Assembly (NCBI RefSeq): GCF_949628265.1
Contig: NC_088790.1
Span: forward strand, 27,532,545 to 27,596,544
Direction: 5' to 3'
Origin: Cloeon dipterum
Lineage: Eukaryota; Arthropoda; Insecta; Ephemeroptera; Baetidae
Length of the DNA stretch: 64,000 bases
The notes under the pieces were generated by a model. The model was not told the origin of the DNA. It searched no databases and saw only the letters and a list, made by a program, of their open reading frames with translations. The position numbers and the translations under genes are program-made. This document shows positions 39,001-45,000 of the stretch, piece after piece (the first letter of the stretch is position 1; each line of letters starts with the position of its first letter).

Positions 39001-42000
39001 ACATGCTTCTTCCGTCTGTCTCGAGACTCTTCAGCAAAAATTACAGGGCTTGGTGCACGGCACAATGGGGTTGCAGTGAGAGACGTCTCTGTTCTGAGGG
39101 TTTATTTTGCGTGACTCTACGTTACGTGTGTGAGAGGACTGTGAATGTGGTGCGGTCGTCTGTGATTTCACGCTCGGTAATCGCGAGTCGGCGAAACTCC
39201 GTCCCGTTGCCAACTGCACAAAAAGCGTCCTCCGCCACCCACCAGAGGCAGAGAATGCGCGCTGTCTGAGAGTTACTTTGACTGCGGGACACGCCACAAA
39301 GAGAACTATGTATATATATAGCGAAGGCGAACAACCAATTTGCCATTTCAATCGCAGTTCCGTGCCAATTGAGCGACAGCAACAAGTTGTTCGCGTTCGC
39401 TCTGCTCCTGCCTCTGTGGTATTTAAGCGAGTGTGTGGCTCAACTACAAGGTACTGGAAAGCACCCAAGGGTGAGTTGAATACAAAAAAAAATCAAGAAG
39501 GATTCAAACGATTTATCGCCAGAAAATCACTAATTGGAAATAACATACATAGTTGAGCTTGGGTTTGCAGAGAGGGTTGAATAATGAGCATTTTAATTAA
39601 GTGTCCACTTGTGAAGAAGCTCGTATATAGGATGCTGCAATTTAGTTGGTGGCGAATTTATTGGTTTCAAGCTGTTTCAGAAATTCACCCAGGGATTTTA
39701 TTTTATTTTTAGCGTGAGAAACGTTTTAAATTTGAATTTTTGAAGCAAGTTTAAGTTTATTATTTGAAATATTTGACGAGACGAATTAGACAATCAATAT
39801 TTTTATTTTCAATCGATATTTTTTTGGTTTAATCGAGGACTTCAATTGACCAGTTGCATAAACCCTTAGTTATTGAAGCCGCCAACAGATGGCGCAACCA
39901 CAGACTTTCTTAAAAATTTTGTTTTAAGCGGTTTTAAGGCATTTTTGCGCTGCGATTTCAGACTCAATCTATCTATTTTGCTTTTTTTAATTAATTTGCC
40001 TTTTTTTGACGTGCTGAAAACCAAAATCGGTTCAGCCATTCGCCGTAGAAACGTTGGAAAATATTTTTTTATTTCAAAAAATAGTTTTTCACGATTCTAC
40101 GGCGATTGGCTGAACCGATTTTGGTTTTCAGCACGTCAAAAAATAGCAAATTAATTGAAGAATGCTCAGTAGCTAGATTGAGTCTGAAATCGCAGCGGAA
40201 GTGCCTTAAAATCGAAAGTCTACGGTGGCGCCATCTGTTGGCGGCTTTGAACACTTAGGGTTTATGCAACTGGTGAATTAACAAAATTTATTTTCTATGT
40301 AATGTAATTTTATTAAAACTTTCCTTAAATCCCTTTGGTTGTAAATTAAAAATTTTTAAACTACAATTCAAGAAATTCAAGAACTTCACCAATGCAAAAT
40401 CGAAGCATCTTAGCAGTTTCTTTGTTATGCATGGAAATACTTAAAATATAAATAACACATTTAAAATCAAATAAACGATATTTCTTTTATTTTTTAAAGA
40501 TTGAACCTTTCGAACGAAATTATTTTTGTTTGTGGGTAATTTATAAAAGTAAGGAAAGTTTATAGTAACAGATTATTGATGATTCTTTGACTCCTCTTTT
40601 GCTTCACTTCAAGTCGTGTTTGTGCAATGCAATAACTATAAATAAGAAAAACTCTCTACCTCTATGTGTGACTGGTCCACTGAAAATGGCAAACAACGTG
40701 ATTTGGGGGTGTGAAAAGCGCAAAAAGGAAGATGAACAGAAGAGCAAGAGATAGACGGAACAGCAGGAAGTCGAAAATAATATATTTATGACGCGCCTTG
40801 GGTGCTTCTTTTGCCAAACTGAAATTTTCCGATCAGTATATATAATCCGATTTTTATTTATTTATTTATATATATCGAAAAGAACCAAACACAATTTTGG
40901 TGCAGTGTGCTGTACCTTGGGGTTGAGGTCGGAGCCTTGTTGCATCAAGGTTCCAATGGTGAACCAGAACGAGTTGGACATGGAAAATTGGTTCTCGACC
41001 ACGTCATTCTCGAGCTCGCAGGGGTGCGGATTGTGCCACTCGTAAGGCGAGAATCGTGCCACGACAAACATGGTAATCGAAACTAACACGTAGGCTGCCA
41101 ACACGTACAGCCAAATGTCCACAGCCAAAGGGTTCATAAAGGAAAAGAGCCGCGTCGGCGCGCTTGTGGGCACCTGGTGGCCAAAGACAAAAGAAACAGA
41201 TTGCCATCAGAAACACACACACTCTCTGAATATTATATACACTGCTTTCTATGTTTGGCCGGAATGGACGGCCGCGACGGAACACGTTCATCGTCTCACT
41301 CGTCTAAAACAATTATATATTTGGCATTATTGTATCCGCAGGCTTCCGAGAATCGGAAGCAATCAAAAGGATATATGAGTAAAGTAAATAAAAAAGCAGA
41401 GAATATATGATAAATAGTTTTAATATTTGTATACTTGTTGGGGTCGCTTCGTTTACCTTTTTTACTGAGGGCTATTTTTTACTCTGAAAGATAAAACCTA
41501 TGCAGTCGGAACAACAATTTTGCGAGATCGTTTTAAAAGATGAACTGTTCTACAAGAGTTGAAATCCTTAGCCTAATTTATTAATTAAAAATCTATATTT
41601 GTTTACACAAAATAAAAAAAAATAAACCGTTTTTCGAACTCATTCACGGACACAGTTCTTCTAATTACAGACAAAATTTAAAAATTAGAATTGTATCGTT
41701 TGTAAACAATTTTTTGTATAAGCCCTTGGTGTTCGAAGCCGCCAACAGATGGCGCAACCGTATACTTCGGTAATAAATTTAATTTTAAGGTACTACCGCT
41801 GTGATTTAAGACTCAAGCATGCCACTGTGCATTCGTCTTTTAATTTTTTTTTCTTTTTACGCCCCGAAAACCAAAATCGGTTTTGCCAATCGCCGTAGAA
41901 TCGTCGGAAAAGGTTTTTATATTTCTAAAAATAGTTTTTCACAATTCTACGGCGATTGGCTCAACCGATTTTGGTTTTCAGCACGTCAAAAGAAAACATA

Positions 42001-45000
42001 TTTAGTGAAAAATGCACAGTAGAAGGATTGAGTCTGAAATCGCAGCGGAAGTGCCTTAAATTAAATTTATTATGAAAGCATACGGTGGCGCCATCTGTTG
42101 GCGGCTTCTAACACTAAGGGCTTATTCAACTGGTGAATTGCCTGCCATCCATATCGAGCTTAAAAATACAGTAGATTGATGAATTCTCTACTTCCCAAGG
42201 CCAAATTTTTAAATTTTGCAAGCACTGCAGAAAATCTAAGTCTGCCAGCATTATTTGTAGTCGCATATTTAATTAATTTTCTACCGGTTCACATTAAATT
42301 TGAAATAATCAACAAATTGTTGAACACTGCAGAAGGTGGTATGCGAACTGAAACTGTGAAACTGATAATAGTTGAAATTCTGAAAGAGAAAAAGGAAGAA
42401 AAAGAGAAGACAGCCACATGCGCAAGAAGGCAAAACACGCGCGCACACACCGACAAACACAAGCACGGGGGAGTATAATTATATTATTAATTTATATTTT
42501 GTTTCACACAGATTGTGAAATGAGGAACCTTTGGGCAGATGCCCGAGCCCTGGCGCAGAAGGGTGCCGGTGATGAACCAGACGCTGTTGTTGACCGAAAA
42601 CTGGTTCACCAGCGGCGGCTCGCGCCGCCTCCACGGCTTGGCGTTGCACCACTCGTAAGGGGTGAGTCTGGCCAACGCGTACAGGGTGAAGCTGGCCATG
42701 CAGAAGGCGGCCACCACCACCAGCCAGATGTCCAGGCCCAGCGGCTCCATGAACGTGAAAAACGTCGACTCTTTGTCCGTCGGCACCTATACACACAACG
42801 TACACACACACGCCACGCCACGCGCAACACCAAAACGCACTTTGACAAACACGATTCGGCTTTTTTGCCGGAAATATCAACCCCGATATTATTTTTCACT
42901 CGTCTGTTTGATTTAATTTAAATTTTATTAATACTCACGGGGAGGTTTTTATCTCTTTTAGCTGCATTCGGAAATTAGATCACGCCCTCAAAAAGAAGAT
43001 TCAGTCGCAGGAAAGGACCGTTGGTGCCATTTTTGTAATTAAAGAACTGTGCAAGAGTAAAAAGTTTTCCTATTTTTTTCCCCTTTGGATGGTGTGAAAT
43101 TCACAACAATTACAGTGATAGTGCTTTAGATTTTCAGATAGGGAATTTAATACGGGGTTTTCGACAACGACGAAGTTTTTATGATTTAATCAGAGATTTT
43201 AGACATTTATACACGGTTGAATTAAAAAAAGAAGTTCACACTGTTTTCACACAATTTTTTCCACGCGTTTTTGTTTTCAAAAAGAGCTCTAAGGACCAAT
43301 CCAGATGGATTCACTGGAGAATTTTGAACTATTTGCACGGAAATAAAACAATAAGTGATCCCACTTAATCTAAAACATTTTTCCAAGCACAAATATGGTT
43401 TAAATCAGCGGGGGACAGATTCATGCGACGCGCAGATATGGCGCCCGGTGGAGTATGGCGCGAAAAAACGGTCACGTGAAAATGCGGGGAAAAACAAAGT
43501 TTTTGTCAATATTGAGACATAATTTGCATTACTCTTAACTAATTGTGTCTTTTGGATCGTAAAAACAAACTCCTGACACTCGTACGGCAATCCAAAGAGC
43601 GCTTTTTGTTTCCCAAATTCAGACGCCATCTTGGATCTGCGCAGTGCAAACCAATTTTATCGCACATCTGGCCCCCGCTGGTTAAAATTGTTTTTTTTCT
43701 ATAGCAAACCGGGTTTCAAATTGAGAAAATGCTTAAATAATTGAAAAATGGATAACTGAGAAAATTATCAATTCACATCTGATTCTAATTTATCTAAAAT
43801 TCTAGAAAAATCATGGACACCATTTCCCGCTTTTAGAAGTTTTCAAAACGATTTTAATTTATCTTGCCTCGACTGGCCCAATTGGATATCAAGCGATGGA
43901 ATCTTCATTTTGAGGGTGAAATTAGGATCCATTCTGTATATTTTTAATCGCATGACATTGTTGAAGAAGAATTTTTGGCCAAAATAGAAACAGGCAACCC
44001 GTTGAACACGTATGACAAGCAGGTTGCATACCCTTCGAAATTTATTAACACGCCCATCACAGGCATCAAGTAGTACGTGTTTGCCAAGGTTCAAACAAGC
44101 AAGCTGGTTACTTAAAAAGGTGAACTATTCATCCTTACCTTAAAGAGTATACTGATTCCCAGGTTCATGAATGGTTTGGTGAAATCAATGACGCTCTCGC
44201 GGGCATAGTTGATAGTCATCGAGCCGACTGCGAGATCAGCTTTCTGCAAGAGCGATAGCACACGGAATTTATTGTTCGGGTTTATTTTCAGCAGCGCTGT
44301 TGTTGCAAAAAAAATCATAATTTTTTTGCGAGCAGACGGAACGGGGTCATTCCGTTGCTATTTTCTGCAACAACGACGCGCGGGTCTTCCGTGTGATGTG
44401 AAAGGGCAACATAATGTGGGGTTGCTAGCTATAATCTATGCGTAGGCAGTCTTACAAGTGGATTGATACGTGAGTATAGGTATTTGTGATACTTGCGGGC
44501 GCGACTGACAAGGCACGGTGCGAACGGGAAGGTGTGATAATACTCTTAACTAATTCTACATAATAAAATGAGTTTTGCGTGAATCTAGAGGATACCGGCA
44601 AATAAATTATGAAGCAGTTGTCTGATATAGATGACAACAGAAAATCTAATTCATTTTCCCAAGGATGCATGTCTTTATTACTGTTTATTGCTCATTTTAA
44701 ATATGTATGTACATGCATAAATTATCGAGATTAATGAAAAATGACAAGCAAGATCTGCAAATACGCCCGAAACAAAAATTAGATTCGTCGTCGTCACGTG
44801 TATGTCCATGGAAGAGGTTTTGACCAGCGGGGTCCAGATTCGTGCGACGCGCAGATATGGCGTCCGGTGGAGTATGGCGCGAAAAAACGGTCACGTGAAA
44901 ACACGCAAAAAGAACCAAGTTTTCGTCATAATTGGCATTACTTGTACTAATTGTGTCTTTTGGATCGTAAAAACAAACTCTTGACACTCCAAAGAGAGCT

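What the first reader, a model, noticed from the sequence alone, without database searches (positions are those of the whole stretch)
40916..42786. Two alternative pore exons in one kainate receptor gene: Arg versus Gln at the Q/R site
Exons 42529-42786 and 40916-41173 are both exactly 258 bp, phase 0-0, and encode the same M1-pore segment. Exon a reads TLLRQGSG, exon b TLMQQGSD. Arg or Gln at this site sets calcium permeability and polyamine block in AMPA/kainate receptors. Vertebrates make the Arg form by ADAR editing of GluA2, GluK1 and GluK2. Here one gene appears to encode both as a splice choice, with the +4 residue (Gly/Asp) changing in step. I know of no described case of this arrangement.
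Basis: partly seen in the sequence, partly recalled or inferred. Interest (0 to 1): 0.93.

Follow-up and report, generated by a model that had tools for sequence, protein, structure and literature searches.

The report
Kainate receptor's alternative Arg/Gln pore exons
A mayfly glutamate-receptor gene carries two interchangeable copies of its channel pore, one with the arginine that should keep calcium out and one with the glutamine that should let it in, and relatives in insects and crustaceans carry the same pair, so these animals may set by RNA splicing what vertebrates set by RNA editing.

Summary
On the minus strand of a Cloeon dipterum-like genome, a kainate-type receptor gene holds two homologous 258-nt, phase 0-0 M1-pore exons: 42786-42529 (LLRQGSG, Arg as CGC) and 41173-40916 (LMQQGSD, Gln as CAA). 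Exons C, M3, S2 and M4 are shared. Beyond the finding: (1) the gene also has two S1 exons. (2) A paralogue about 150 kb away (CG11155 type) has the same pair in the same order. (3) The pair occurs across sampled insects and crustaceans; Arg exons of both paralogues group together (100/99; 98/98 without columns -1, 0, +4; grouping lost but not rejected when -6 to +5 are removed), so one ancient duplication fits best. (4) Arg-only and Gln-only gene models of this gene exist in eight insects, which supports a splice choice. Against strict exclusivity: many models, including the published Cloeon one and 87 of 104 paralogue records, join both exons in series, and all combinations keep frame. No reads could be mapped. 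Best reading: an exon-encoded switch of Q/R and +4 (D/G), working like edited versus unedited GluK2. Calcium effects are inferred. Ten searches of one open library found no description. New variant of a known kind.

The parts
42529..42786 (-). Pore exon a (M1 and pore loop), Arg at the Q/R site (LLRQGSG, codon CGC), 258 nt, phase 0-0; donor AAG|gttcct
40916..41173 (-). Pore exon b (M1 and pore loop), Gln at the Q/R site (LMQQGSD, codon CAA), 258 nt, phase 0-0; donor AAG|gtacag
41174..42528 (-). Intron between the pore exons, 1355 nt, 23 stops in the frame that continues exon a; holds a palindromic repeat element
46881..47084 (-). Alternative S1 (glutamate-binding) exon a, 204 nt
45670..45873 (-). 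Alternative S1 exon b, 204 nt, 61% identical to S1a
44139..44243 (-). Common S1 exon C just upstream of the pore exons, 105 nt
38591..38788 (-). M3 and start of S2, single copy ([10 protein letters not shown]), 198 nt
37895..38120 (-). S2 exon 1
37558..37722 (-). S2 exon 2
37263..37363 (-). M4 exon
36773..36970 (-). First cytoplasmic-tail exon; later tail exons not traced
47781..56360 (-). Span of six amino-terminal-domain exons (56360-56109, 52659-52490, 52388-52335, 51245-51081, 49620-49468, 47984-47781); first exon(s) not traced

Best explanation
This is a kainate-type glutamate receptor gene with an exon-encoded Q/R switch. SHOWN by sequence: two homologous exons each supply the whole M1-pore segment; one has Arg at the Q/R site with Gly at +4, the other Gln with Asp; all later channel exons are shared; a paralogue and sampled insect and crustacean relatives keep the pair, and the Arg exons most likely share one origin. 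SUPPORTED by gene models of other species, not by reads seen here: mRNAs join exon C to the Arg exon or to the Gln exon and then to M3. INFERRED: the Gln/Asp form makes calcium-permeable, polyamine-blocked, inwardly rectifying channels; the Arg/Gly form makes calcium-poor, polyamine-insensitive, lower-conductance channels or dominates in mixed tetramers, as edited GluK2 and GluA2 do. The choice would be made during splicing by cell type or stage, possibly together with the S1a/S1b choice. Frame does not enforce exclusivity, so double inclusion must be suppressed by regulation or tolerated as a product that is not a normal receptor.
For: Exons, borders and frames; single C, M3, S2, M4 set; genomic Arg codon CGC; same pair and order in the paralogue L010; Arg-only and Gln-only gene-1 records in Cryptotermes (P0013/P0040), Tribolium castaneum (P0016/P0043), T. 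madens (P0024/P0045), Tenebrio (P0018/P0052), Photinus (P0022/P0033), Anoplophora (P0029/P0066), Neocloeon (P0079/P0091) and Schistocerca gregaria (P0068/P0104); 22 Arg-only and 48 Gln-only among 88 gene-1 records; Clastoptera record without genome contig with Gln only (P0208); Arg exons of both paralogues on one side of a branch, 100/99, and 98/98 without columns -1, 0, +4; +4 G in 34 of 34 Arg exons, D in 37 of 37 Gln exons; Q586 and D/E590 named as controls of calcium permeability and polyamine block in passages of PMC6307864.
Against: No transcript from this species was seen. 17 of 88 gene-1 and 87 of 104 gene-2 records have both pores in series, among them the published Cloeon protein P0003, Clastoptera P0006 (no genome contig) and six Drosophila takahashii isoform records. 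No Gln-only gene-2 record was listed (no search was aimed at that form). All combinations keep frame, and the 1355-nt gap gives no steric block. With columns -6 to +5 removed the free tree no longer groups the Arg exons (3 changes), though holding them together is not rejected, p 0.66. No physiology.
Confidence: 0.68

Rival explanations
1. Both pore exons are normally included in series, giving a subunit with two M1-pore hairpins. This would turn M3 and S2 round in the membrane (a product that is not a normal receptor, perhaps dominant-negative) or use an unknown topology.
For: In-series records: 17 of 88 gene 1, 87 of 104 gene 2, 7 of 8 unassigned, across insects, Daphnia, Artemia, a barnacle, decapods and an isopod; Clastoptera P0006, which has no genome contig, carries all four alternative exons; all six D. 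takahashii records listed are in series.
Against: Ranking of the three searches favours records with two pores. 46 of 88 gene-1 records also carry both S1 copies in series, which should not build one binding lobe. The Cloeon model P0003 bridges the pores with 20 residues of intron at 41303-41244 and loses the end of S1a. Single-pore records of the same gene exist. Both pores keep their own invariant signature, hard to explain if only one could line a channel.
Confidence: 0.17
2. One of the two exons is a little-used remnant, and the gene works with one pore.
For: The gene-1 Arg exon is the more divergent one and its donor is gttcct; in this sample Hymenoptera gene-1 records show only Gln.
Against: Both exons are open with intact splice sites and pore motifs; the pair is kept in two paralogues and across sampled Pancrustacea; both single forms are modelled in eight species.
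Confidence: 0.08
3. The locus is two overlapping or tandem genes, each with its own pore exon.
For: A full paralogue does lie about 150 kb away, so gene duplication has happened here.
Against: Around the two exons there is one C, one M3, one S2 and one M4 set, and the paralogue has its own pair and set.
Confidence: 0.03

Closest known systems
ADAR2 editing of the Q/R site of vertebrate GluA2, GluK1 and GluK2
   Same: Same pore site, same two residues, expected same effect on calcium and polyamines (established knowledge; position confirmed by the alignment)
   Different: Here Arg is in the genome (CGC), in a separate exon that differs over its whole length, and +4 changes as well (Gly for Asp); editing changes one base of one exon
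Flip/flop exons of vertebrate AMPA receptors (recalled)
   Same: Tandem alternative exons in a glutamate receptor
   Different: Flip/flop lies in S2 and tunes desensitisation; here the M1-pore segment is exchanged
Drosophila CG11155 and its insect and crustacean relatives (public records)
   Same: Orthologues of the paralogue; same Arg and Gln pore segments in the same order
   Different: Listed Drosophila records have both pores in series; the window gene is the other paralogue, with an S1 pair as well
Mutually exclusive exon pairs of insect channels such as cacophony and TrpA1 (abstract starts seen)
   Same: In-frame alternative exons in insect channel genes
   Different: Other channels, and no Q/R site

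Membership tests
Kainate-type ionotropic glutamate receptor | S1-M1-P-M3-S2-M4 layout and [10 protein letters not shown] motif, closest to GluK subunits | tested here: met
   Best solved-structure matches are GluK2, E 2.7e-160 over residues 1-417; Lig_chan exon matches in the window; motif in the M3 exon
Mutually exclusive exon pair | Adjacent homologous exons of equal length and phase with own splice sites | tested here: met
   258 and 258 nt, phase 0-0, 48% identity
Mutually exclusive exon pair | Each exon used alone in some mRNA | tested here: inconclusive
   Arg-only and Gln-only gene models of the orthologue in eight species; no reads from this species
Mutually exclusive exon pair | The two exons are not joined in one mRNA | tested here: inconclusive
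   In-series records are common (17 of 88 gene 1, 87 of 104 gene 2), but their transcript support could not be checked
ADAR Q/R editing site | Arg arises from a genomic Gln codon by A-to-I editing | tested here: not met
   Arg codon is CGC in the genome in both paralogues
Q/R-type control of calcium permeability | Arg or Gln at the Q/R position, acidic residue at +4 in the permeable form | tested here: met
   Gap-free alignment to GluK2; R with G, Q with D
Q/R-type control of calcium permeability | Arg form less calcium-permeable and less rectifying | not testable with these tools
   Needs recordings

The most novel reading that the evidence does not exclude
Insects and crustaceans have carried since a common ancestor a splice-encoded Q/R switch in kainate receptors that does by exon choice what vertebrates do by ADAR editing. 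It survives in two paralogous genes and, in gene 1, stands beside a second alternative exon pair in the glutamate-binding domain, so that ligand response and calcium permeability could be chosen together.
Probability: 0.55. Interest if true: 0.9.

Novelty: new variant of a known kind. Interest (0 to 1): 0.8.

Why it matters
The Q/R site sets calcium entry through fast excitatory receptors, and in vertebrates its control rests on RNA editing. A genome-encoded, splice-selected version in insects and crustaceans would be an independent solution to the same problem, testable at once in species with genetics and RNA data (Drosophila CG11155, Tribolium, Schistocerca). It would also warn that many database entries for these receptors hold two pores in series.

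Tried and rejected
Two genes rather than one: rejected, only one C/M3/S2/M4 set. ADAR origin of Arg: rejected for this locus, CGC is genomic. Independent origin of Arg in the two paralogues: disfavoured, not excluded. Frame-based or minimal-intron enforcement of exclusive splicing: rejected, 258 is a multiple of 3 and the gap is 1355 nt. Shared intron control elements between the paralogues: the long blastn matches fall in stretches of the window that also recur elsewhere in it (and the sequence) and look like mobile elements; the short matches look like chance.

Led nowhere: structure models of the Neocloeon Arg form (mean pLDDT 37.4) and of the Neocloeon in-series gene-2 form (39.1) are too poor to use, so no fold search was run. 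Ten paper searches (listings with abstract starts seen) showed no paper on such a pair; the form 'q r site' had 0 occurrences in the 25 papers listed, so that term was blind. Papers seen as passages only: PMC6307864, PMC4382183, PMC2924276, PMC5769321, PMC4370714. Term look-ups without a useful hit: PMC3303723, PMC3228551.

Corrected on the way: the first pore count called four gene-2 records Arg-only (P0147, P0183, P0187, P0199) and P0036 Gln-only, which asks for the junction to M3, replaces it. P0006 was first read as having one S1; it has both.

Full report
WHAT IS THERE. The window is G000:C5:27532545-27596544 of a 190 Mb, 10-contig genome. The gene's joined translation differs from a published Cloeon dipterum protein (P0003) by 4 substitutions in 993 aligned columns, of which 29 are gaps at exon borders, so the animal is Cloeon dipterum or a very near relative. 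The gene lies on the minus strand. Exons traced: six for the amino-terminal domain, two alternative S1 exons (47084-46881, 45873-45670), a common S1 exon C (44243-44139), two pore exons (42786-42529, 41173-40916), then single M3, S2, S2, M4 and first tail exons. The first exon(s) and later tail exons were not traced.

THE PORE PAIR. Each exon is 258 nt, starts and ends between codons and has ag and gt at its borders. They share 48% of residues. Exon a ends [17 protein letters not shown], exon b [17 protein letters not shown]. Exon a aligns without gaps to GluK2, so Arg and Gln stand on the Q/R site and Gly and Asp on the +4 site; both sites are named as controls of calcium permeability and polyamine block in PMC6307864 (passages). 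The codons are CGC and CAA: the Arg is in the genome.

THE PARALOGUE. About 150 kb away, on the other strand, a second gene (L009/L010) shows one S1 exon, one C exon, an Arg exon (258 nt...FITGTFLRQGSGLNPK, CGC), then a Gln exon (279 nt...[19 protein letters not shown]) and a single M3. Its homologues include the Drosophila busckii protein named CG11155 (P0180).

HOW WIDE AND HOW OLD. Three protein searches, each listing the best 120 of 1345 to 7975 matches, gave 208 distinct records. In a tree of 76 pore exons from chosen records (34 Arg, 37 Gln, 5 outgroup), all Arg exons of both paralogues lie on one side of one branch, support 100/99. Without columns -1, 0 and +4 the support is 98/98. Without -6 to +5 the free tree does not group them (3 changes), but the tree that holds them together scored higher and is not rejected (p 0.66). 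Rows include mayflies, a damselfly, Orthoptera, termites, a cockroach, Hemiptera, beetles, flies, a sawfly and a bee, Daphnia, Artemia, decapods, an isopod and a barnacle. One R/Q exon duplication before the two genes split is the simplest reading. Caveats: few columns, some long branches, chosen rows, bootstrap not settled. The Arg label was set by the motif LRQ, which fixes positions -1 to +1; +4 Gly in 34 of 34 Arg exons and +4 Asp in 37 of 37 Gln exons do not follow from the label.

IS IT A SPLICE CHOICE. By the junction to M3, 88 gene-1 records split into 22 Arg only, 48 Gln only, 17 Arg then Gln and 1 unscorable; 104 gene-2 records into 9 Arg only, 0 Gln only, 87 Arg then Gln, 1 Arg then Arg and 7 unclear or unscorable; 8 records fit neither gene clearly (7 in series, 1 Gln only) and 8 are other receptors. 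Eight insects have both single forms of gene 1 (listed in the evidence). In Neocloeon one Arg-only model has S1a and one Gln-only model has S1b, a hint of coordination and no more: Schistocerca has S1b with either pore. Clastoptera has two gene-1 records without any genome contig: P0208 with S1b and Gln only, and P0006 with all four alternative exons in series. That such records come from transcriptomes is recalled, not checked.

THE IN-SERIES PROBLEM. Reasons to doubt many of them: the ranking of the searches favours records with two pores; 46 of 88 gene-1 records also carry both S1 copies in series, which should not form one binding lobe; the Cloeon model bridges the pores with 20 residues of intron at 41303-41244 and loses the end of S1a. 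Reasons to take them seriously: they recur in many species and isoforms, among them the six D. takahashii records listed; one is the Clastoptera record; and every combination keeps frame. A second M1 after the first pore loop should turn M3 and S2 round in the membrane (general knowledge), so an in-series product is unlikely to be a working receptor. The absence of Gln-only gene-2 records is weak evidence, since no search was aimed at that form.

MECHANISM. Shown: interchangeable exons, shared later exons, residue pairs kept together. Supported by other species' models: inclusion of either exon alone. Inferred: cell- or stage-dependent choice, and the calcium and polyamine consequences. How double inclusion would be avoided is unknown: the gap is 1355 nt (1420 in the paralogue) and there is no frame penalty. 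Both Arg-exon donors begin gttc, a possible clue, but by a plain consensus count they are not the weakest in the gene.

WHAT IS KNOWN. Ten full-text searches of an open-access library listed no description of exon-encoded Q/R alternatives in arthropods (call numbers in Tried and rejected); most subscription papers are absent from it, and Q/R is not a searchable term. Isoform records of both kinds already sit in public databases under automatic names, so the raw facts are public even if the pattern seems undescribed. Verdict: real, old, widespread in the sample and apparently unremarked; a new variant of alternative exon use in ion channels.

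Noticed in passing
window 47084-46881 and 45873-45670: Two alternative S1 exons, 204 nt each, 61% identical, in the same gene; S1a exons of chosen insects and crustaceans lie on one side of a branch with weak support, 77/73.
   Followed up: partly
L014:6677-6991 (G000:C1) and L012:7293-7883 (G000:C5): Two other kainate-type loci carry a pair of half-pore segments, both Gln (QQGCDFLPK and QQGSDIAPK). In L014 only 33 nt separate them, probably too short to splice, which would force an either/or choice; in L012 the gap is 309 nt.
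   Followed up: partly
window, e.g. 41711-42130 and 46117-46522: A palindromic repeat of about 400 bp with core CGCCATCTGTTGGCGGC sits in many introns here (11 core matches on +, 12 on -, up to 3 mismatches), including between the S1 exons and between the pore exons; it looks like a mobile element.
   Followed up: no
window C-to-exon-a intron and L010 C-to-Arg-exon intron: A 269-nt stretch 92% identical between the two paralogues' introns, similar to other intron stretches in the window; probably another mobile element.
   Followed up: no
P0101 (Bombyx mandarina): A record with two Arg pores in series and no Gln pore.
   Followed up: no
P0196 (Caerostris darwini): A spider record with a pore ending MRRGCDFLP followed by one ending MQQGSDILP in series: Arg at the site in another receptor group.
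   Followed up: no
window 49468-49620: This exon ends at a GC donor (TCG|gcaagt) if spliced as in Neocloeon; the published Cloeon model uses a gt 6 nt further on.
   Followed up: no
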